Below are positions 48,530 through 60,301 of a stretch of 64,000 nt of DNA, piece after piece. Source of the DNA: Pectobacterium sp. PL152 (lineage in GTDB: Bacteria; Pseudomonadota; Gammaproteobacteria; Enterobacterales; Enterobacteriaceae). Each line of letters begins with the position of its first letter. The first letter of the stretch is position 1. Where the stretch lies: NCBI GenBank assembly GCA_021907015.1, contig CP091064.1, positions 2,294,001 through 2,358,000 of the forward strand, given 5' to 3'. The notes below the pieces were generated by a model. The model was given only the letters and a program-made list of their open reading frames with translations. It was not told the DNA's origin and did not search any database. The position numbers were made by a program, and so were the translations under genes.

Positions 48530-49644
48530 ATGCCACGCGTGCTGCGCGACCTGATCCCCACGTTGCTGTGGCTATGGGTTTCCCAGGCCACCGCCGCCGT
48601 CTGCGACTGGCCAGCCTGGGAGCAGTACAAACAGCATTACATCAGTGCGGAAGGACGGGTGATTGATACCTCTACCCCCAACAAAATCACCACGTCCGAA
48701 GGGCAAAGCTACGCCATGTTCTTTGCGCTGGTCGCCAACGATCGCGTGATGTTTGAACGGCTGCTGCAATGGACGGAAAACAACCTGTCCGCCGGTGATT
48801 TGCGCGCTCATCTGCCCGCCTGGCTGTGGGGAGAGAGCAAGGATAAGCAGTGGACAGTGCTGGATCCGAACTCCGCTTCCGATGCCGACTTGTGGATCGC
48901 CTACAGCCTGCTTGAGGCTGGTCGGCTGTGGAAAGAAGCGCGCTATCAGACCGTAGGCACCGCGTTGCTCGCCCGTATCGCCAAAGAAGAGGTCGTCAAT
49001 ATTCCAGGGCTGGGCGTGATGTTGCTGCCCGGCAAAGTAGGCTTCGCAGAGAAAGAGAGCTGGCGTTTAAACCCCAGCTACCTTCCGCCACAGCTGCTGG
49101 CTCGCTTTGCGCCGCTGGGTGAGACGTGGAAAGCCATGCAGCGCACCACGCAGCGCCTGCTGTTGGAAACCGCGCCAAAAGGCTTCTCGCCTGATTGGGT
49201 CATCTGGCAAAAAGATAAGGGCTGGCAGCCTGATACCACTAAACCCAACGTCGGCAGCTACGACGCCATCCGCGTCTATCTGTGGGCAGGGATGATGGCC
49301 GACAGCAGCAGAGGAAAAACCGATCTGGTCAAACAGTTTCAGCCGATGATTCAGCAAACCATCCAGCAAGGTCTACCGCCTGAAAAAACGGATACCTCAA
49401 CAGGTGCCGTCACCGGACAGGGGTCGGTAGGTTTTTCCGCTTCGCTGCTGCCGATGCTCTCCCGTCAACCGGACGCGCTGGCTGCTCAGCGACAGCGGCT
49501 GGTCGACAACCCTCCGGGGATGATGCGTATTTCTCCGCCTCTCTGACGCTCTTTGGTCAGGGATGGGATCAGAAGCGCTATCGCTTCACTTCACAAGGCC
49601 AACTTTTACCGTCTCGGGGCAGCCAATGCACAACAACACCGTAA
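48530..49644 (+). CDS. bcsZ: Periplasmic endo-beta-1,4-glucanase BcsZ (GH8; one frame break)
   Basis: About 371 residues (E. coli 368) after restoring one G in the run at 49517-49520. Signal peptide ([12 protein letters not shown]), then a GH8 (alpha/alpha)6 barrel. The general acid Glu is in [12 protein letters not shown] (about residue 55). [17 protein letters not shown] and [14 protein letters not shown] carry further active-site residues. It trims or edits nascent cellulose in the periplasm. The corrected frame ends at 49644, overlapping the bcsC start by 19 bases. Confidence 0.93.
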
Positions 49645-52600
49645 ACTGGCTGCACTTCCTCCCGTTATTGCTAGCTGCTGCGCCGCAGGCATACAGTGCG
49701 GAAACCGCATCGCCAGAGCAATTTTTGATGGAGCAGGTGCGTCTGGGAGAGGCCAGCAACAAAGACGACCTCGTGCGCCAGTCTCTTTATCGACTGGAGC
49801 TTATCGATCCAAATAACCCCGAGGTTATCGCCGCCCGAGTACGGCTGGCGCTGCGTCAAGGCGATCAGGCTCAGGCACGTCAGCAACTGGACAAGCTGAA
49901 AACGGTAGCTCCCGACTCTGCCACCTACCGTCAGTCAGCCATCATGCTGGCACTGACGCAGGATGCCGCGCGCCAGCAATTACAGCAGGCGCGCTTGCTG
50001 TCTACCGCCGGGCGCTATGCTGAAGCCAAAACACAGTACGATGCGCTCTTTCACGGCGAGCCACCCACGATCGATCTCGCCGTAGAATATTGGCGTCTGG
50101 TTTCTCGCTTGCCCGACCAGCAGCCCCTGGCGATTAAGCAACTGGAGGCGTTAGATCAGGTCTACCGAATAATGTTCCGCTGCGCATGGTGCTGGCACGG
50201 CTGTTGTTTAGCCAGAACCGCAATGAGCAAGCCTATCCCCTCCTCGAACAGCTTTCTAATGACCCCGTCGGACGTAGTCAGGCAGCGTCACTCTGGCTGG
50301 AAATTATTGGCCGGATGCTGGTCACGCCACAAAGCGTGGCTGAACTAAACCGCTTTTTGACCGTGTTTGATGAAGGCGAACAGGCGGATACAGCACGTAA
50401 AGAACTCAGCCGCCAGCAGGGAATATTAGCCGACCCCGTTTATCAGGGAGGCTGCACGCACTGGCGCAAATTGAAGATGGCGGCGGCAATACCGCCACAC
50501 TTAGCGAGTTGAATAAGGCGCTGGCGGCCACGCCAAACGACCCTGAGCTGATCGGTGCCATTGGTCTGGTTTACCTGCGCGCAGGCGATCGGGAAAAAGC
50601 ACTGGCGCAGTTCCAGAAGGCATTGCAGGCGGATGTTAACCGCCTGAACAGCGGCAAATGGGAAGGGCTGATTAAAAGCACGCAATATTGGGCCACCATT
50701 GCGGAAGGTGACAACGCGCTGAAAACTAACAACCTATCGCTGGCGCGGCAGAAATATCAGCAGGCTCGCCAGATGGACAATACCAATGCTTATGCGCTGA
50801 TTGGTTTGGGCGACGTGGCGGTTGCCAGCAAAAATGATGCTGCCGCCCAGCCGCTCTACCAGCAGGCTTTACACCTTGAACCCGGCAATAATAACGCCCT
50901 ACGCGGATTGGTTGGTATTTACCAGCGGCAGTCGCCGGAGAAAGCACTCGCTTACCTCAACAGCCTGCCGCGCAGCCAGCAGAAGACGATGCGAGAGACG
51001 CTTGCTGCCCTGCAACTCAATATCCTGAAACAGCAGGCGGATAGGTTGTCGGAACAGCAGCAGTTGACGCAGGCCGAGGAAAAATATCGTCAGGCCAACC
51101 AGCAGGATCCGAACGATATATGGCTCGCTTATCACTATGCCCAGACGCTGCGCCAGTTAGGGCAAACGCAGCAGGCGGACAGCGTGGTACAACGCGCGAC
51201 CGCGGTGCCGCCCGCCAGCGCAGAGAAGAACTACGTTTACTCACTTTACCTGTCGTCTACCAATCGTGATGAGCAAGCACTCGCTCACCTGAACACGCTG
51301 CCCGCAGCACAGTGGAGCGACGACATGCGTGATTTATCCCAGCGTCTGACGATTCAGACCACGCTGGCGAAAGCGGAAGCGATGCGCGATGCGGGTAACG
51401 AACCTGCCGCTATTGCGTTCCTGCGCCAGCAACCGGCTGACACCCGTATCGACCTGCTACTGGCAGACTGGGCGCTGGCACGGGGTGAATACGCGACGGC
51501 GCTGGCGGAGTACCAGCGCATCCGCACGCGGGAACCGCAGAACCCCGACGCCCAGTTAGGCGAGATCGACGCGTTTATCGCGCAGGGTCGGCAAGATGAT
51601 GCGCGCCAACGTCTGAACCAGCGCCCAACACAGGCAGCGGATACGCTTAACAGCCAGCGGCGCGTCGCCAACGCCTGGCAAGCGGTAGGGAATCCGCAAA
51701 AATCAGCAGCCCTTTTCCGCCAGCTAAAAATCGATGTGCAGAAAGCGCCAGTCAGCCAAACGCCTATCGATCAAACGACAGCGCTGATCTATCGCGATGC
51801 GGCACGCGTTGAACAGCAGCAATCTCAGCCTGAACAGGCACAGCAGGACTATAAACAGGCGATGGTCGCCAGCGGCATCACGCCCACTCTGCCGCAAACC
51901 GATGATGATTACACTCGGCTGACGCGTAATAAAAGTAGCGATGACTGGCTGCAACGCGGCATCCGCGCCGGTGCGGCGGATCTGTATCGCCAGCAGGATA
52001 TTACCGTCACCCTTGACCACGATTACTGGAGCTCGAGCGGCACCGGCGGGATTTCCAATCTGAGCGCCCACGACACCATGTTGCAGATAGAGATGCCGCT
52101 GTACGACGGCCGTGCCTTCTTCCGCACCGATACCATGCAAATGAATGCCGGTTCCTTCTCGACAGGCAGTAACGGCGCCTACCGGGAAACCTTCGGCACC
52201 TGCGCCACACAGGACTGCTTCGACGGTAAATCACAGAAAACGACGGGTACAGCGTTGCCGCAGGCTGGAAAACGATCGTTGGTCAGCGGATCTCGGCACC
52301 ACACCGCTCGGCTTTGACGTAGTTGATGTTGTCGGTGGCGCAAGCTACAGCGGCGACTGGCGACAAATCGGCTGGACGGCGACGGCATCGCGCCGCCCCA
52401 TATCCAGCTCATTGCTGGCATTCGGCGGTACCAAAGACCCAGGCACCGGCGTTACCTGGGGTGGCGTGCGCGCCACGGGCGTCAGCCTTGGGCTGAGCTA
52501 CGATCGGGGTGAAGCGCATGGCGTCTGGAGTGATTTCAGCGTCCACCAGATCACCGGTAAAAACGTGACCGATAATGACCGCGCCCGTGCCATGGCGGGT

Positions 52601-53116
52601 TATTACTACAAGCTGATTAACGAGGATAACCGACGCGTCACGGTCGGCCTGAACAGCATGTGGTGGCGCTACCAGAAGGATCTCAGCGGTTACTCGCTCG
52701 GTCAGGGCGGCTACTACAGCCCGCAGCAGTACTTCTCGCTGGGCGTGCCGGTGAACTACCGGCAGCGGACGGAAAACTGGTCGTGGGAACTCGGCGGATC
52801 GCTGTCGTGGTCACATTCTTCTACCAAAGATCAACGTCGCTATCCGCTGACCGGCCTGCTGGGCAACGCGGCGATCGCCGACAGAGACACCATCGAGCAG
52901 GGTAGCAGCAGTTCCGGCTTCGGCTATACGGCGCGAGCGCTTGTCGAACGCCGCCTCAGTTCACACTGGACGCTGGGTGTCGGTATCGACATTCAGCAAG
53001 CGAAGGACTACACCCCAAGCCACGGCCTCATCTACCTGCGCTACTCCGCCTCCGGCTGGCAGGGCGATCTCGACAGCCCACCGCAGCCGCTTACGCCGTA
53101 CGCGGATTTTAAATAG
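49626..53116 (+). CDS. bcsC: Cellulose export outer-membrane protein BcsC (four frame breaks)
   Basis: About 1164 residues (E. coli 1157). Single bases are missing near 50168, 50450, 52245 and 52264-52267. The ATG at 49626 starts a signal peptide ([17 protein letters not shown]). Many TPR repeats follow (for example [26 protein letters not shown]), which span the periplasm and contact peptidoglycan or BcsB. From about 52000 on, a beta-barrel domain begins ([20 protein letters not shown]) and ends in aromatic YADFK, the outer-membrane pore for cellulose. Last gene of the bcsRQABZC operon. Confidence 0.92.
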
Positions 53117-53121
53117 CGGTA

Positions 53122-54180
53122 TCAGGAAAGATTGAGGGCTTCACCTTTACGCCACTGGCGCGGGCTAATGCCAAACCAGCGACGGAATGCACGGGAAAAG
53201 GCGCTCACCTCGGAATAGCCGAGCAACAGCGCCATTTCCGAAATCGGCAGTTGCTTCTGTTGAAGATAGTGCGTCGCCATTTCACAGCGCAGTTTGTCTA
53301 CCAGCAGAGAGAAGCTGAGCCCTTCCTCCCGCAGACGACGCTGGAGCGACCAACTGGACAACCCCACCTTCTCCGCCACCTCTTCCAGCGTCGGCTCTTT
53401 CTGCATCAATAACAGATGAACCTGCGTACGCACCTGATCGACAATACTTTGCTGCGGTGACGTCTCGTTCAGACGGCGAATCGCATCTTGCATCACCAGC
53501 AGCAATGTCATGTCGCGATCCGGCATGGTGCGGGTCAGTTGGTGTTTGGGAATAAGCAGAGAATTATAGGGTTGATCGAAGTAAACCGGTGCATCAAACA
53601 CCTTACAGTGCTCATGCCACATTTCCGGGCGCGGATGCTCAAAATGCACTTCACGCGGTGCCCAGTGCTTGCCCAAAACATGACGAATCAGGTTGAGCAG
53701 CATACCCAGCGTCAGTTCAGCATCCTGCCGGCGATGCAGAATGGCGCCGTGCCGAACCTGATAATCCAGCCGCCAGCAGTCGCCTTTATCCACCATGCGC
53801 GTCAGCGTGTCGTGCTGATGGCAGGGAAACGCCTTCACCACATTGTGCAGCGCCTGCTCCAGCGTATCCGAACATAAACCGATATAGCCGATCAGGCCTA
53901 ATGACTGCGGTTTAAACTGCTTGCCGTAGCGTAAACCGAAATTATCAACGCCTGAATTGCGCGCGGCTTCCTCCATCACACGGCAATAGTTCACCAGCCC
54001 CAGACTGAGCGTCGGGCTGGCGAGCTGCTCGGGATCGACGCCGCTGATGCCGAAGATACGATCGGCATCACCGCCATTATCATGGATAAAGTCGCCGAGT
54101 CCGGTTGCCGCCGCCGCCAGCACGCCACAGTTGCGGGAGAACGCCGCATTCAGCGCCGAAGAGTACGTCACGTTTTCCAT
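53122..54180 (-). CDS. AraC-family transcriptional regulator
   Basis: A 352-residue regulator. The N-terminal ligand-binding domain is of the arabinose-operon-regulator type (AraC_N/OruR-like) with GLGDFIHDNGGDADRIF at the start. Two helix-turn-helix motifs lie at the C-terminus: LEEVAEKVGLSSWSLQRRL (about 275) and ISEMALLLGYSEVSAFSRAF (about 318), followed by the AraC signature RRWFGISPRQWR. It stops 6 bases after bcsC converges. It lies beside the amino-alcohol genes and most likely controls them, but control of bcs cannot be excluded. Confidence 0.88.
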   Translation of the reverse strand: MENVTYSSALNAAFSRNCGVLAAAATGLGDFIHDNGGDADRIFGISGVDPEQLASPTLSLGLVNYCRVMEEAARNSGVDNFGLRYGKQFKPQSLGLIGYIGLCSDTLEQALHNVVKAFPCHQHDTLTRMVDKGDCWRLDYQVRHGAILHRRQDAELTLGMLLNLIRHVLGKHWAPREVHFEHPRPEMWHEHCKVFDAPVYFDQPYNSLLIPKHQLTRTMPDRDMTLLLVMQDAIRRLNETSPQQSIVDQVRTQVHLLLMQKEPTLEEVAEKVGLSSWSLQRRLREEGLSFSLLVDKLRCEMATHYLQQKQLPISEMALLLGYSEVSAFSRAFRRWFGISPRQWRKGEALNLS

Positions 54181-54352
54181 TGCCTTTCACCTCGCCGTAT
54201 CACACGGCCCGCCAACGGGCCATGAAACGATCAGCAGACTTCATACCAGCAAGTTTCATACCAGAGCGTGAGGAAGTGAAATCAATGGGTTACAAATCTC
54301 TTGTGGGACGAGCAGGCATTACCATAGCGCACGCTGCCCGCCCGTGGTGCAT

Positions 54353-55360
54353 TCAGGCCACGCCAATCGGCAGATCGCTGGTTTCCAGATAGCGCCGACA
54401 CAGGCGCACGCTATGTTTTGCCCAGTCTGGCCCAAGACTCTGCGCCATCTCGGTTTCCGCGTGCGACCCTACCCACGCCGTAAGCTGGATGCGCCGCTGG
54501 ATCAACAACGTCGGCAACAGCGCCAATTCCTCATCGCTGACGTGCGCCACACGCTCATAACCACACAGCCAGTTTTCAACCCACTCCGCCGCACGCGGAT
54601 GGTGCTCAACAAAGCTGATCGCCGCGGCCAGATCGTGCAGATACCACCCCATACCGCAGTCATCAAAATCGATAACTCGCGTTTCGCCGCGATGCAGAAG
54701 CAGATTGGTCAGGCGCAGGTCGGCATGAATCAACCCGTAGCGGTGCGGCGCTTTGCCAAATTCCGCCATTTCCGCCCCCATACGCCCGATGGCTTCCTCG
54801 ACAATACCGTGTTCGCCACGCGATAGGTTCGGCGCGTCACGCCAGTTTCCCCAATGGCTCTGCGCGCTGACCATCGTGTGATGATCCCAGACAATACGCT
54901 GGAAGCCGTCAGGTTTTTGCCATTGGCGGCTATGCTGGTGCAGGCGGGCGGTGATCTCGCCCAGTTGCTGGAACGCTCGCGGATCAATGCTGGTGGTCGG
55001 CATCTCGCCGTCAATCCAGTGAAACAGCACGGCATAGCGACAGGAACCGTCGGATAAACCCAGTGACTGCACCCGCTCCCCATCCACATTACGAACCGCT
55101 TCCGGCACGGCAATGCCCGTTTCTCGCAGCGCATCCAGCCACAGCAGCTCGCTTTCAATCTCCGCTTTCTGGTGATAGTGGCTGCGATGTAGCCGCAGTG
55201 CATAACGCTTACCTGCCGACGAAACAAGAAACGTCGCATTTTCCGAGCGGCACAGCAGCCGCACTTCCCCTTGCAGCGCCGCCGGATAGCAGGCAAGCGC
55301 CCGGTGCGCCAGCGCAGTAATTTCTGCATTACTTAAGGTGTCATATTGTTTAGCACTCAT
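54353..55360 (-). CDS. APH-family amino-alcohol (ethanolamine) kinase, putative
   Basis: A 335-residue aminoglycoside/choline-kinase-fold phosphotransferase. Brenner's motif is HADLRLTNLLL (H-D-N, about residue 225) and the metal-binding DFG equivalent is VIDFDDCGMGW (about 241). The N-lobe has ENATFLVSSAGKRYALRLHR. Start at MSAKQYDTLS (55360). Its gene is divergent from an ethanolamine-type permease and a class III PLP enzyme. Kinase plus PLP lyase is the arrangement expected for phosphorylation of ethanolamine, 1-aminopropan-2-ol or hydroxylysine. The family is sure; the substrate is inferred. Confidence 0.75.
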   Translation of the reverse strand: MSAKQYDTLSNAEITALAHRALACYPAALQGEVRLLCRSENATFLVSSAGKRYALRLHRSHYHQKAEIESELLWLDALRETGIAVPEAVRNVDGERVQSLGLSDGSCRYAVLFHWIDGEMPTTSIDPRAFQQLGEITARLHQHSRQWQKPDGFQRIVWDHHTMVSAQSHWGNWRDAPNLSRGEHGIVEEAIGRMGAEMAEFGKAPHRYGLIHADLRLTNLLLHRGETRVIDFDDCGMGWYLHDLAAAISFVEHHPRAAEWVENWLCGYERVAHVSDEELALLPTLLIQRRIQLTAWVGSHAETEMAQSLGPDWAKHSVRLCRRYLETSDLPIGVA

Positions 55361-55618
55361 GGTTCCCACTCCGACGCGAGTCAACGAGCGTTCAGCATGG
55401 CGTGTGTCGTACAGAGAAACTTGACGCACCAGAACCCCGGTTTGACCCCAGAAGGCGCAGGCGCGATACCCACCGTAAAAGTTGACTTCAGCGCGCAGCA
55501 TTCGATACGCCAGCGTCAAGTTTTCCACCAACAAGCGTGGGCATTATCGCTACACAAGCCAACAAGGGTTGCCGTACTGGCCCTAAATAACCATGAGCAG
55601 ACTGACGGGGATAATGTG
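55361..55618. other. Divergent control region of the amino-alcohol genes
   Basis: About 258 bases between the kinase and permease starts. It should hold both promoters and the AraC-type operator. No clear direct repeats could be assigned. Confidence 0.4.
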
Positions 55619-56980
55619 ATGACGAGCAAATTAAAGCCCACGCTGGGCACCCTGCATTTGTGGGGTATCGCGGTAGGATTGGTAATTTCTGGTGAATATT
55701 TTGGCTGGAGCTACGGCTGGGGCGTCGCGGGCACGTTGGGATTTTTAGTCACGACGTTGTTCATTGCCGCCATGTACACCTGTTTTATTTTTAGCTTTAC
55801 CGAACTCACCACGGCGATCCCCCATGCTGGCGGCCCTTTTGCCTATAGCCGACTCGCGTTCGGCGATCTGGGTGGCCTGATTGCTGGTATGGCCACGCTG
55901 ATTGAATTTGTTTTCGCACCACCAGCCATTTCAATGGCGATTGGCGCCTATCTGAACGTGCAATACCCCGAGTTGAATCCCAAATTCGCGGCCGTTGGCG
56001 CATACCTTATCTTTATGAGCCTGAACATTCTCGGCGTGAAGCTGGCGGCGATGTTTGAGCTGGTGGTCACGCTGCTGGCCGTCATGGAACTGCTGGTGTT
56101 TATGGGCGTGGTTGCGCCAGGCTTCAGCCTGAGTAATTTCGTGGCACACGGTTGGGCGGGACAACATGAATTTTCACCCGCAGCCATTTCCGGTATGTTT
56201 GCAGCGATACCGTTCGCCATCTGGTTTTTCCTCGCTATCGAAGGCGCAGCAATGGCTGCCGAAGAAGCGAAAGATCCCAAACGCACGATTCCGCGAGCCT
56301 ACGTCAGCGGCATCCTGACGCTGGTGGTGCTGGCAATTGGCGTGATGCTGATGGCGGGCGGCGTAGGCGACTGGCGTCAGCTCTCCGACCTCAACGATCC
56401 CTTGCCACAGGCCATGAAGCTCATCGTCGGGGAAAACTCCAACTGGATGCACATGCTGGTGTGGATTGGTCTGTTCGGTCTTATCGCCAGCTTCCATGGC
56501 ATTATTCTGGGCTATTCTCGCCAGTTCTTCGCACTGGCGCGCGCGGGCTATCTTCCACCGGGGCTTGCCAAACTGTCCCGCTTCCACACGCCGCACCGCG
56601 CCATTCTGGCTGGTGGCGCGATCGGGATTGCCGCCATCTTCTGCGACGGGATTAACCTACAGGGCATGAACCTGACGGCAGCGATGATTACCATGGCGGT
56701 TTTTGGTGCCATCGTCATGTACATCATGAGCATGTTAAGCCTGTTCCGCCTGCGCCGTAGCGCCCCCAATATGGCACGCAGCTATCGTGCCCCTGGTTAC
56801 CCCATCGTCCCCGCGTTCGCCCTCGTCTGCGCCATCATCTGCCTGATTGCGATGCTCTGGTTCAACCCGGTGATCGGTGGGCTGTTCTGCACCTTTATGC
56901 TGCTCGGCTATCTCTATTTCCTGACGACCAAAGCGCGACGGGAACATCTGCTTGAGCCGCTTGTCGCCGATGCTAACTAA
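55619..56980 (+). CDS. Ethanolamine-type APC permease
   Basis: A 453-residue amino acid-polyamine-organocation transporter with about twelve membrane helices. GLVISGEYFGWSYGWGVAGTLGF at the N-terminus (with the G-rich unwound helix 1 motif) and SFTELTTAIPHAGGPFAYSRLAFG are characteristic of ethanolamine permeases (Eat family). The ATG at 55619 is chosen because the protein then begins MTSKLKPTLGTLHLWG; the longer upstream frame has no transporter features. It lies 32 bases before the PLP enzyme on the same strand, so the pair is an operon. Confidence 0.85.
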   Translation: MTSKLKPTLGTLHLWGIAVGLVISGEYFGWSYGWGVAGTLGFLVTTLFIAAMYTCFIFSFTELTTAIPHAGGPFAYSRLAFGDLGGLIAGMATLIEFVFAPPAISMAIGAYLNVQYPELNPKFAAVGAYLIFMSLNILGVKLAAMFELVVTLLAVMELLVFMGVVAPGFSLSNFVAHGWAGQHEFSPAAISGMFAAIPFAIWFFLAIEGAAMAAEEAKDPKRTIPRAYVSGILTLVVLAIGVMLMAGGVGDWRQLSDLNDPLPQAMKLIVGENSNWMHMLVWIGLFGLIASFHGIILGYSRQFFALARAGYLPPGLAKLSRFHTPHRAILAGGAIGIAAIFCDGINLQGMNLTAAMITMAVFGAIVMYIMSMLSLFRLRRSAPNMARSYRAPGYPIVPAFALVCAIICLIAMLWFNPVIGGLFCTFMLLGYLYFLTTKARREHLLEPLVADAN

Positions 56981-57012
56981 CACTGCGGCGCACATTTATA
57001 ACGGGAGAGAGT

Positions 57013-58356
57013 ATGGCAACACGTTCAACCATCATGGATACCAACAGCTTCCGCGCCGAACATGCCGACGCGCTGAGCGCGGATATCCGTACGCTGACCG
57101 ACAAGCGCAGCCGGGTACTGGGTGAGTCTTATCGTCTGTTTTATCGCAAACCGGTTCATCTGGTGCGTGGCGAAGGGCAGTACCTGTGGGATGCCGACGG
57201 CAAGAAATACCTGGATGTGTATAACAACGTCGCCAGTATCGGCCACTGCCACCCTGCGGTGGTAGAGGCGGTACACCAACAGATGACAATGCTCAATACC
57301 CACACGCGCTATCTGCATGAGCGTATTCTGGACTATTCGGAGCAGCTCCTCGCCACCGCACCCACGGCGATCAACCGTGCCATGTATATGTGCACGGGTT
57401 CGGAAGCCAACGATCTGGCGATCCGCGTGGCGCGTGCCTGGAGCGGCGGCACAGGCGTGATCGTGACGCGTGAAGCCTACCACGGCACCAGCGATCTGAC
57501 CTCCGGCGCCTCACCGGCATTGGGCAGCGGCCAACCGCTGGCAGCGACGACCCGACTGGTGCCGCCGCCGGACGCCTACCGCGTTAATACGCCGGACTTG
57601 GGCGTGTGGTTTGCCAATGAAATCCAGAAACAGATCGACGACATGGCGGCACACGGCATCAAATTTGCCGCGTTCCTTGCTGATTCCATCTTTTCTTCCG
57701 ATGGCGTACACCCCAATCCGCGCAGCTTTTTGCGTCCTGTGGTTGATGTGGTTCACCGCAATGGCGGTATTTTCATCGCGGATGAAGTTCAGCCCGGTTT
57801 CGCACGCACTGGCGACGCCTTCTGGGGTTTCGCACGGCATGACGTCGTGCCGGATATCATCACTACCGGAAAACCCATGGGCAACGGCATCCCGGTTTCC
57901 GGGCTGCTGGCAAAAAGCGACGTACTCGCCGCCTTTAGCGACCAGATCCCCTACTTCAATACGTTCGGTGGGAATCCGGTGGCGATGGCCGCTGCGCAGG
58001 CGGTGCTGAAAGTGATTCACGATGAGCAACTTCAGGAACACAGCCGCGTCGTGGGCGCACAGTTGCTGGCAGAACTGACTACCCTGCAAGACAAATACGC
58101 CAGTGTAGGCAACGTGCGCGGCGCCGGACTCTTCATCGGGTTTGAGTTGGTGAGCGATAGAGACAGTAAAACGCCGGATAAAACGCTGGCGCTAAATCTG
58201 ACGGAAGCACTACGCGATCGCGGTGTGCTGACATCGGTAGCAGGCCCTTATGGCAACGTGCTGAAACTACGCCCGCCGCTGGCGTTCCAGACGCAGGACA
58301 TCGACTGGCTGGTCGGCGCACTGGATGACTGCCTGGGCGCGCTAACCCACGCCTGA
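57013..58356 (+). CDS. Class III PLP enzyme, putative amino-alcohol O-phosphate phospho-lyase
   Basis: A 447-residue class III aminotransferase-fold protein. NNVASIGHCHPAVVEAVHQQ (about 76), MCTGSEANDLAIRVAR (about 117), ADEVQPGFARTGDAFWGF (about 256) and the PLP lysine in TTGKPMGNGIPVSG (about 285) are clear. The AGXT2L branch of this class (ethanolamine-phosphate and phosphohydroxylysine phospho-lyases) is built this way and lacks typical transaminase use. With the linked kinase and permease, the reaction expected is ethanolamine phosphate to acetaldehyde, ammonia and phosphate. Alternative: an omega-amino acid transaminase. Confidence 0.75.
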   Translation: MATRSTIMDTNSFRAEHADALSADIRTLTDKRSRVLGESYRLFYRKPVHLVRGEGQYLWDADGKKYLDVYNNVASIGHCHPAVVEAVHQQMTMLNTHTRYLHERILDYSEQLLATAPTAINRAMYMCTGSEANDLAIRVARAWSGGTGVIVTREAYHGTSDLTSGASPALGSGQPLAATTRLVPPPDAYRVNTPDLGVWFANEIQKQIDDMAAHGIKFAAFLADSIFSSDGVHPNPRSFLRPVVDVVHRNGGIFIADEVQPGFARTGDAFWGFARHDVVPDIITTGKPMGNGIPVSGLLAKSDVLAAFSDQIPYFNTFGGNPVAMAAAQAVLKVIHDEQLQEHSRVVGAQLLAELTTLQDKYASVGNVRGAGLFIGFELVSDRDSKTPDKTLALNLTEALRDRGVLTSVAGPYGNVLKLRPPLAFQTQDIDWLVGALDDCLGALTHA

Positions 58357-58620: not shown

Positions 58621-60301
58621 TTGTGTAAAACCCTTTCTTTTATAAGCCTTATTTTTTTGAGCCTCTGCAGCTCAACCTTCGCCGCTACCCCCATTAGCCC
58701 AACAGATCGGGATGCGCTGGAACTCCAGCAAAAGTCATTATTGGAGCAGGCCAAACAGCAGCGCTTATCGTTGGAAAACAGCACCACCTTAACGATACCC
58801 ACGGTCACTGCACCAACAGCAAAGGATGCTGTCTGCTTCCCTATCCAAAGGATTACCTTTCACGATGCAGAGTCCCTTTCAACGAAAGATCGGGCCGCTA
58901 TTCAGCAACGCTACCAAAACCGCTGCCTGGATTTAGCCACAGTCCATAACGCCGTGAGGGAAACGACCAACGCCTACCTTAATCGCGGCTTTGTCACCAG
59001 TCCGGCCTATTTACAGGAGCAAGACCTCTCCAGCGGCACGCTCATCATCAGCGTCAGCGAGGGAAAGATAGAAGCCATTCGCATGGAAGGGGAAACACCA
59101 CTCGCAATCAAGATGGCCTTCCCGGGCTGGAAGGACGCATTCTCAATCTGCGCGATATCGAACAAGGGATGGAACAACTTAATCGCCTGCCTTCGCAGCA
59201 GGTTACGATTGATATTCAGCCGGGAAAACAGGCCGGAAGTTCGATTGTTTACCTCAAACGCACCACGCAAGCCCGCCCTATCACCCTGTCTCTCAGCACA
59301 GACAACAGCGGACAAAAAGCACGGGCCGCGAACAGCTTTCTACCCACCTAACGCTCGATAACCCGCTGCGACTCGCTGACCGCTGGTGGCTCACCGCCAG
59401 CCGTGATAGCGCATTCAGCCATAGCTACGGCAGCGAAGCCTTATCGGGCGGGATGTCTTTGCCTTATGGCTACTGGACGCTCGGCTACCAATACGCCTGG
59501 AATGACTTTTTCCAACCGATCCCGATTGGCAGCAGTGCATATCGCTATGCAGGGCAAAGTAATACCCATCGGCTCAGCCTCAACAGAACGCTCTATCGGG
59601 ATGGGAAGCAGAGGCTGGCGCTGGATGGCGCGCTCTCCCGCCGACGCACAGAAAACCGCATGGCGGGCGAGCGCCTTGAGGTCAGCAGCCCTACGGTCAG
59701 TAGCGCTAGCCTTGGGCTCAGCTATAGCACCACACTGGCGGGCGGATATTTTACGCTCAACCCGATGTTAAGCCATGGCTTAAGGAGTTGGGGCGCAACG
59801 GATGACACAAAGGAAAACCGTGACCTGCCGCGCAGCGAGTTCCGCAAATTTAGCGCCAGCAGCAGCTATTTCTACCCACTTACCCCTTCGCTGACCTTCC
59901 TGACCTCCCTTTATGGCCAGACCACGCCGGACAACCTGTATACCAGCGAACGCATCTCGCTCGGCGGCGAGTATTCCGTGCGGGGATTTAAGGAACAAAC
60001 GCTAACTGGCAATCGGGGTTTCTACTGGCGTAATGAACTGAATTGGCAATTCACCACGCTGCCATTTTTGGGAGATATCGCACTCACAACGGCAGTGGAT
60101 AGCGGATGGATCGCGGGGAAAACTGGCAAAGTCGATGGTGGCAATATGACCGGCGCTTCCATCGGCCTGTCTGCATCTTCACGTTGGGTCAACCAATCAG
60201 TGTCGCTCGGCGTGCCGCTGCATTTCCCGGACGATCTCCATCCCGACAATGCCGTCGTTTACTGGCAAGTCTCCCTCCCCGTTACGGCACTTTTTGATTA
60301 A
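58621..60301 (+). CDS. Two-partner secretion outer-membrane transporter TpsB (ShlB/CdiB type; two frame breaks)
   Basis: About 560 residues after restoring a G near 59128-59130 and an A in the run near 59313-59317. Start is TTG at 58621, giving a signal peptide (FISLIFLSLCSSTFA). A POTRA region follows (CFPIQRITFHDAESLS; AYLNRGFVTSPAYLQEQDLSSGTLIISVSEGKIEAI). The C-terminal half is an Omp85-type barrel with RISLGGEYSVRGFKEQTLTGNRG, the conserved L6 loop VRGF motif. It exports the exoprotein encoded 40 bases downstream. Whether the system is haemolytic or contact-inhibitory depends on that partner. Confidence 0.9.

What the first reader, a model, noticed from the sequence alone, without database searches (positions are those of the whole stretch)
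53122..58356. Candidate genes for the classical Erwinia amino-alcohol kinase / phospho-lyase pathway
An APH-fold kinase, an ethanolamine-type permease, a class III PLP enzyme like AGXT2L phospho-lyases and an AraC regulator lie together. Erwinia species were shown biochemically decades ago to degrade ethanolamine and 1-aminopropan-2-ol through an amino-alcohol kinase and an amino-alcohol O-phosphate phospho-lyase, giving aldehyde, ammonia and phosphate. This cluster has exactly the parts required, and differs from the B12-dependent eut microcompartment route.
Basis: partly seen in the sequence, partly recalled or inferred. Interest (0 to 1): 0.78.

Follow-up and report, generated by a model that had tools for sequence, protein, structure and literature searches.

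The report
Vitamin-B12-free ethanolamine breakdown gene cluster
Four neighbouring genes in a soft-rot bacterium look like candidate genes for an ethanolamine-eating route, measured in Erwinia decades ago, that adds a phosphate to ethanolamine and then splits it into aldehyde, ammonia and phosphate without vitamin B12.

Summary
The four genes are real and where stated: AraC regulator, APH-fold kinase, ethanolamine permease (over the NCBIfam cut-off), class III PLP enzyme. The PLP enzyme lies in a fully supported clade with the two solved phospho-lyases (6tor, 5g4i), apart from transaminases. The kinase's one close solved relative is 6ef6 (41% identity; recalled as a mycobacterial aminopropanol kinase). 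EutB and microcompartment shell genes are absent. AraC-kinase-permease is a recurrent cassette with a shared TTGAC array; in many Erwinia and Pantoea the lyase lies elsewhere beside a DeoR-type regulator. Of 78 lyase-bearing genomes or loci checked (from the best 79 of 322), 67 have a kinase of this family. The lyase of the other 11 stands beside an ABC importer, in 10 related to aminoethylphosphonate importers; but 6 of these 11 hold a distant, different kinase. No activity was tested. The chemistry is known; the gene assignment and the proposed phosphoethanolamine-import branch are what is new.

The parts
53122..54180 (-). AraC-family regulator (PF12625 + HTH_18; over the NCBIfam QhpR cut-off), 352 aa
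   Evidence: beside kinase and permease in 19 of 19 fetched unlinked cassettes
54353..55360 (-). APH-fold kinase, predicted amino-alcohol (ethanolamine) kinase, 335 aa, with HADLRLTN and IDFDD motifs
   Evidence: 6ef6, 252.5 bits; 41.1% over 314 positions; start codon
55361..55618 (.). Divergent promoter region with TTGAC at 55421, 55442, 55482 and GTCAA at 55515 (another GTCAA at 55380)
   Evidence: TTGAC-N16-TTGAC in 31 of 37 and TTGAC-N24to32-GTCAA in 32 of 37 homologous gaps; 0 of 47 regions upstream of lyases without a kinase in the locus
55619..56980 (+). Ethanolamine permease (TIGR00908, over cut-off), 453 aa
57013..58356 (+). Class III PLP enzyme, predicted phosphoethanolamine (amino-alcohol phosphate) phospho-lyase, 447 aa; PLP lysine K287; Lys418 where 5 of 13 comparison rows have Arg

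Best explanation
The cluster encodes a B12-free, shell-free ethanolamine catabolic route. Ethanolamine enters by the permease; the AraC regulator, probably sensing the amine, activates the two divergent transcripts from the TTGAC array; the kinase uses ATP to make O-phosphoethanolamine; the PLP enzyme eliminates phosphate and the enamine hydrolyses to acetaldehyde and ammonia. 1-Aminopropan-2-ol would give propionaldehyde in the same way and may be a secondary substrate. Shown by computation: gene content, family placement, recurrence of the cassette, the conserved operator-like array, absence of EutB and of shell genes. Inferred: every catalytic step, the substrate, the inducer, and identity with the activities measured in Erwinia in the 1970s.
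For: PLP enzyme: best solved relatives are 6tor, ethanolamine-phosphate phospho-lyase (337.1 bits), and 5g4i phospholyase (329.3); the next is a racemase at 184.0. Tree: 86-row clade with both, SH-aLRT 100. 13 positions are kept in that clade and in both solved lyases and absent from 13 comparison rows. Kinase: 6ef6 252.5 bits, next 71.4. Permease over cut-off. No EutB in 25 of 25 genomes of the genus; no PF00936 in own genome. In the genus 10 of 10 genomes with this lyase have this kinase. Of 78 lyase genomes or loci checked 67 have a kinase of this family; in the other 11 the lyase stands beside an ABC importer, as if the lyase needs a phosphorylated substrate either made or imported. The importers are relatives of aminoethylphosphonate importers in 10 of 11, and two of the three nearest solved binding proteins are known or labelled as binders of phosphorylated metabolites. 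Phospholipase C (TIGR03396) lies near the lyase in two lineages.
Against: No enzyme assay. 6ef6 is recalled to act on (S)-1-amino-2-propanol, so the window kinase could be an aminopropanol kinase. Substrates of nearly all members of the lyase clade are untested here, and human PHYKPL, a related lyase with another substrate, was not compared. The kinase/importer pattern has three weaknesses: 6 of the 11 genomes without a window-type kinase hold a distant kinase of the third-locus type; it is not corrected for ancestry (seven of the 11 are close enterobacterial kin); and this very genome has both a kinase and, elsewhere, an importer. The nearest solved relative of the importer's binding protein, 8x1a, is labelled an iron-compound binder. 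A paralogous lyase-kinase pair elsewhere in the genome could carry the classical activity. Two Pectobacterium genomes keep the cassette without an intact copy of this lyase, though both hold the 79%-identical paralog.
Confidence: 0.8

Rival explanations
1. The cluster's main physiological substrate is 1-aminopropan-2-ol, giving propionaldehyde, with ethanolamine secondary.
For: Nearest solved kinase is 6ef6, recalled as the (S)-1-amino-2-propanol kinase whose paper is cited in PMC8007038.
Against: The permease is over the cut-off of the ethanolamine permease model. 6ef6 falls in a supported 20-row kinase group (97/100) that leaves the window kinase out; 9 of the 18 genomic loci of that group carry an SDR in the fetched stretch (none of the six Rhizobiaceae), against 1 of 39 loci of the window's group; the two SDRs tested hit 6ci8/6ci9 first. 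Lyase contexts elsewhere point to phosphoethanolamine.
Confidence: 0.12
2. The PLP enzyme is an omega-transaminase and the kinase serves something else.
For: It is over the Pfam cut-off of the general class III aminotransferase model; many of the 25 NCBIfam rows shown (of 69) are transaminase models, all far below their cut-offs.
Against: Clade with two solved phospho-lyases, 13 clade-specific residues, 145-bit gap to the best other solved structure.
Confidence: 0.04
3. The classical Erwinia kinase/lyase activities come mainly from another locus of these genomes: the third lyase paralog with its own kinase and an SDR (genome 184817-188005).
For: That locus has a kinase and a 53%-identical lyase; a 52-53% lyase is in 22 of 25 genomes of the genus, against 10 of 25 for the window lyase.
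Against: Its kinase is about 20% identical to the window kinase and to 6ef6 and resembles the kinase part of the PRK06148 fusion; no ethanolamine permease was seen beside it (ORFs read by eye).
Confidence: 0.15
4. Hydroxylysine kinase plus 5-phosphohydroxylysine lyase.
For: Same chemistry in the animal pathway (Veiga-da-Cunha 2012, seen only as a reference in PMC8154272).
Against: Ethanolamine permease in the same operon; lyase contexts elsewhere. PHYKPL and HYKK sequences were not compared.
Confidence: 0.03

Closest known systems
Erwinia amino-alcohol kinase / amino-alcohol O-phosphate phospho-lyase pathway (Jones, Faulkner and Turner 1973; recalled, not read)
   Same: Same order of steps; same host group by old naming (recalled); no B12
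   Different: Known as activities in extracts; the listings (9 and 51 capped) showed no paper that gives it genes
RMM/Aaum aminoacetone-utilisation microcompartment of Mycobacterium smegmatis (6ef6 kinase, 6ci8/6ci9 SDR; identities recalled)
   Same: Kinase 41% identical to 6ef6; kinase-then-lyase logic (recalled)
   Different: No shell protein in this genome, no SDR and an ethanolamine permease in the cluster; kinase outside the 6ef6 group
Phospho-lyases 6tor (ethanolamine-phosphate phospho-lyase; recalled as human ETNPPL) and 5g4i (recalled as Arthrobacter A1RDF1)
   Same: Same clade and same clade-specific residues
   Different: The window enzyme is encoded in an operon with an ethanolamine permease and opposite a kinase
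Eut ethanolamine ammonia-lyase pathway
   Same: Same input and same first products, acetaldehyde and ammonia (general knowledge)
   Different: No EutB in 25 of 25 genomes of the genus; no shell here; would cost one ATP

Membership tests
Ethanolamine-phosphate phospho-lyase (EC 4.2.3.2) family | Groups with solved phospho-lyases, apart from transaminases | tested here: met
   86-row clade with 6tor and 5g4i, SH-aLRT 100; quick tree without bootstrap, long branches flagged, few comparison rows
Ethanolamine-phosphate phospho-lyase (EC 4.2.3.2) family | Class III fold signature with PLP lysine | tested here: met
   PF00202 267.1 bits; K287 and D257 conserved
Ethanolamine-phosphate phospho-lyase (EC 4.2.3.2) family | Releases phosphate, ammonia and aldehyde from O-phosphoethanolamine | not testable with these tools
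   needs an enzyme assay
6ef6-type amino-alcohol kinase | Close sequence relation to 6ef6 and intact kinase motifs | tested here: met
   252.5 bits, 41.1% identity, HADLRLTN and IDFDD
6ef6-type amino-alcohol kinase | In the same kinase group as 6ef6 | tested here: not met
   6ef6 is in a 20-row group (97/100) that leaves the window kinase out; so '(S)-1-amino-2-propanol kinase' is not claimed
Ethanolamine permease TIGR00908 | Score over curated cut-off | tested here: met
   617.4 against 381.75
Eut B12-dependent pathway | EutB present | tested here: not met
   the E. coli control rings
Microcompartment pathway | BMC shell protein PF00936 in the genome | tested here: not met
   2 of 14 control genomes ring (E. 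coli, Synechococcus)
QhpR regulator | Score over curated cut-off of NF049968 | tested here: met
   336.2 against 250
QhpR regulator | Controls a quinohaemoprotein amine dehydrogenase | not tested
   no search for such genes was made; function as QhpR is not claimed
Classical Erwinia amino-alcohol pathway | Kinase and lyase activities on ethanolamine and 1-aminopropan-2-ol (recalled) | not testable with these tools
   needs assays or mutants

The most novel reading that the evidence does not exclude
Phosphoethanolamine, not ethanolamine, is the centre of this metabolism. A DeoR-type regulator that senses phosphoethanolamine controls the lyase; the substrate is either imported ready-made by a PhnS2T2U2-like ABC importer (after a secreted phospholipase C cuts it from lipids) or made inside by the AraC-controlled permease-kinase cassette. 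Pectobacterium has both branches (window cluster, and the paralog at genome 4456058) and in the window has a second lyase copy under the AraC switch. The 'putative aminoethylphosphonate' importers beside such lyases would then be phosphoethanolamine importers. (Odds lowered from 0.45 after one search showed that 6 of the 11 importer-type genomes hold another, distant kinase.)
Probability: 0.4. Interest if true: 0.65.

Novelty: new member of a known kind. Interest (0 to 1): 0.55.

Why it matters
It would put genes on an enzyme pair measured in plant-associated enterobacteria about fifty years ago, explain how Pectobacterium and Pantoea could use ethanolamine without B12 or a microcompartment, and give two sister kinase groups (ethanolamine-type and aminopropanol-type) to compare. 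The importer branch predicts that some transporters named for aminoethylphosphonate carry phosphoethanolamine, a common lipid head group.

Tried and rejected
Omega-transaminase reading: rejected on the tree and residue comparison. Eut pathway: rejected, no EutB. Microcompartment version: rejected for this genome; a passage of PMC3486870 reports a microcompartment in P. wasabiae SCC3193, so this does not speak for the whole genus. One regulon for cassette and unlinked lyase through the TTGAC array: not supported, 0 of 47 regions of 520 bases upstream of such lyases carry either pattern, though L033 has two TTGAC 23 bases apart; these regions share an AT-rich TGTATTT/TTGCATTT stretch instead. 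Six positions that separate my choice of window-type kinases from 9 rows around 6ef6 were listed; at one of them 6ef6 has the window's residue; they were not interpreted, since the pocket of 6ef6 could not be read. Aminoglycoside-resistance reading of the APH fold: not pursued. No structure prediction was run.

No listed title linked these genes to the Erwinia pathway. Papers: PMC8154272, passages and one section; PMC8007038, PMC8262871, PMC3486870, passages; PMC4546632 and PMC8427247, title and start of abstract in a listing; Jones 1973, Veiga-da-Cunha 2012, Mallette and Kimber 2018 not read.

Rows left out or thin: the 79 lyase loci are the best of 322 relatives found by pattern scan, so they lean towards the window's kind. 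L040's lyase (a stop early in the frame) was dropped from the lyase tree; L066's lyase matched only in two short pieces and was not in it; of L065's only the longer piece was used. L067's genome was not searched for the kinase. 15 of the 34 unlinked kinase places were not fetched. Kinase searches used E up to 1e-20, while linked kinases were counted at 1e-5. Several own-genome comparison enzymes entered the lyase tree twice.
Full report
WHAT IS THERE. The four genes lie at the stated place as intact open frames. Start codons and the conserved alignment of neighbours give AraC 53122-54180 (-), kinase 54353-55360 (-), permease 55619-56980 (+) and PLP enzyme 57013-58356 (+), with a 258-base divergent promoter region between kinase and permease and 32 bases between permease and PLP gene. 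Pfam gives PF12625/HTH_18, APH, AA_permease_2 and Aminotran_3; the permease passes the ethanolamine permease model TIGR00908 (617.4 bits, cut-off 381.75) and the regulator the QhpR model (336.2, cut-off 250). Lyase, kinase and permease are 99-100% identical to those of Pectobacterium aroidearum L6 (L062), so the window is from that genus, part of the old Erwinia carotovora group (recalled).

THE PLP ENZYME. Its two best solved relatives are 6tor, ethanolamine-phosphate phospho-lyase (337.1 bits; recalled as human) and the phospholyase 5g4i (329.3); the third is a racemase at 184.0. In a tree of 104 rows it lies in an 86-row clade with both, SH-aLRT 100, apart from the comparison rows: six class III enzymes of the same genome (some entered twice), a racemase and six rhizobial second copies. 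The tree is a quick one without bootstrap and flags long branches, those of 6tor and 5g4i among them. Thirteen positions are kept in at least 97% of the clade and in both solved lyases and absent from all 13 comparison rows: N71, N72, N95, R99, Y108, V247, G252, P288, M289, F315, N316, V331, K418 (three columns where the comparison rows were cut short, or nearly all gaps, are not counted). At K418 five comparison rows have Arg and six Ile. PLP lysine K287 and D257 are present.

THE KINASE. Three solved sequences match; 6ef6 is far ahead (252.5 bits, next 71.4) at 41.1% identity over 314 positions. I recall 6ef6 as the (S)-1-amino-2-propanol kinase of the M. smegmatis aminoacetone microcompartment; that paper is cited in PMC8007038 but not held, and the PDB label says only aminoglycoside phosphotransferase. 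In the kinase tree 6ef6 falls in a supported 20-row group (97/100) that leaves the window kinase out; forks inside that group are partly weak. Nine of the 18 genomic loci of that group carry an SDR in the fetched stretch (none of its six Rhizobiaceae; in L071 it lies about 4 kb from the kinase), against 1 of 39 loci of the window's group. The two SDRs tested, from L085 and L070, hit 6ci8/6ci9 first, recalled as the aminopropanol dehydrogenase of the same microcompartment. In the window's group 38 of 39 loci have a relative of the permease (37 at 60% identity or more) and 38 of 39 the AraC gene. So there appear to be two sister systems: one often with an SDR, for aminopropanol, and the window's, with an ethanolamine permease.

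NO EUT ROUTE. EutB is absent here and in 25 of 25 genomes of the genus, with the E. coli control positive; no BMC shell protein in this genome.

DISTRIBUTION. In the genus the kinase (89% identity or more) is in 12 of 25 genomes and this lyase (96% or more) in 10 of 25; all 10 have the kinase. Of the other two with kinase, G395 keeps only two pieces of the lyase and G406 shows none at the cassette, while both keep regulator, kinase and permease and both hold the 79%-identical paralog elsewhere: consistent with that paralog doing the same job. That paralog type is in 15 of 25 genomes, so two of two is weak evidence. The named loci are the best 79 of 322 relatives. Of these 33 have a kinase of this family in the locus (28-99% identity). 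Of the other 46, 45 genomes were searched whole with five positive controls (all five found): 34 of 45 have a 61-79% identical kinase elsewhere. I fetched 19 of these 34: all 19 are AraC-kinase-permease cassettes without the lyase. In 394 genomes drawn from the order 17 have a lyase relative at E up to 1e-100.

KINASE OR IMPORTER. In the 11 genomes without a window-type kinase the lyase stands beside an ABC importer: in 10 a relative of this genome's own PhnS2T2U2-like importer, with a DeoR-type regulator seen in nine (not in L033); in the eleventh (L046, Vibrio) a peptide/nickel-type importer and a DeoR-type regulator. Among the 34 with unlinked kinase one (L063) has that importer at the lyase; among the 33 linked, none at that locus, though other loci of those genomes were not looked at and this genome has both. 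Fisher p for 10 of 11 against 1 of 34 is 3.7e-8, without correction for ancestry; seven of the 11 are close enterobacterial kin, and the rows in the tree (8 of the 10) fall in about three lineages. Two of the importer loci (L040, L066) seem to have broken lyases. Only 5 of the 11 thus lack both kinds at E up to 1e-20.

The importer proteins of this genome's own copy score below the NCBIfam cut-offs for putative aminoethylphosphonate transport (339 against 392.75, 407 against 457.7, 477 against 593): relatives, not members. Their binding protein is nearest 8x1a (labelled iron-compound-binding), 4r72 and 6wce. Entry 4R74, same sequence as 4r72, is named in PMC4546632, whose abstract calls AfuABC a hexose/heptose-phosphate transporter, and 6wce is labelled a pyridoxal-5-phosphate binder. 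Phosphoethanolamine is the oxygen-bridged analogue of aminoethylphosphonate. Phosphocholine-specific phospholipase C (TIGR03396, over cut-off) lies near the lyase in L033 and L042. Together these make phosphoethanolamine the likeliest lyase substrate.

REGULATION. The kinase-permease gap carries TTGAC at 55421, 55442 and 55482 and GTCAA at 55515. TTGAC-N16-TTGAC is in 31 of 37 homologous gaps (four more have N17) and TTGAC-N24to32-GTCAA in 32 of 37; simple shuffles give a mean of 0.02 of 37 for the first. Several of the 37 are near-identical, and TTGAC also resembles a sigma-70 -35 box. None of 47 regions upstream of lyases without a kinase in the locus has either pattern; they share an AT-rich stretch instead. 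So cassette and unlinked lyase look like separate regulons. DeoR-type regulators often sense phosphorylated metabolites (general knowledge), so phosphoethanolamine as inducer is a guess.

PARALOGS HERE. The genome has lyase 2 (79%, 4456058-4457371) with the importer and DeoR-type regulator, and lyase 3 (53%, 184847-186079) with its own kinase (about 20% identical to the window's), an SDR and an importer whose binding protein is weakly PotD-like (52 bits, cut-off 582). A lyase 3 is in 22 of 25 genomes of the genus, more than the window's. It is the main rival for the classical activity.

VERDICT. The chemistry is known; the gene assignment, the ethanolamine-type kinase group and the importer branch are what is new. 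Not shown: any activity, the inducer, the aldehyde step, and identity with the 1970s enzymes.

Noticed in passing
window 49563-53116: A long gene (cellulose operon, named by eye) is split into four ORFs in different frames, while G406 has one open frame of 1171 aa over most of that stretch (L084 8485-12000): sequencing error or decay.
   Followed up: partly
window 58621-60301: A two-partner-secretion transporter gene (named by eye) is split in two frames here; G395 has a single 560-aa frame (L083 1966-3648).
   Followed up: partly
L080 3062-9381 (genome 4451061-4457380): Second lyase beside a PhnS2T2U2-like ABC importer and a DeoR-type regulator; proposed phosphoethanolamine import locus.
   Followed up: yes
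L081 6818-16927 (genome 184817-194926): Third lyase with its own APH-fold kinase, an SDR, an importer, a succinate-semialdehyde dehydrogenase (over cut-off) and a class III transaminase gene split in two ORFs.
   Followed up: partly
L085 5801-10949 and L111: A Pectobacterium (G406) carries, without shell genes in the 14 kb read by eye, an SDR like 6ci8/6ci9, a kinase near 6ef6 and a 46% lyase, with a permease weakly similar (24%) to the window's; Lonsdalea quercina has a like set (its SDR not tested against solved structures).
   Followed up: partly
L033 2168-4381 and L042 44-2128: Phosphocholine-specific phospholipase C (TIGR03396) near the lyase in a betaproteobacterium and in Gluconobacter.
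   Followed up: partly
L086 3866-6276: In G406 a further kinase-lyase pair beside what looks by eye like an amino-acid-type ABC importer and a GntR regulator; substrate unknown.
   Followed up: no
L046 4031-8349: Vibrio xiamenensis lyase, without a window-type or third-locus-type kinase in the genome, between a peptide/nickel-type ABC importer and a DeoR-type regulator.
   Followed up: partly
G437, G442, G443, G444, G446, G451: Genomes with importer-linked lyase but also a third-locus-type kinase; in G443 it lies about 6 kb from the lyase with a stop inside.
   Followed up: no
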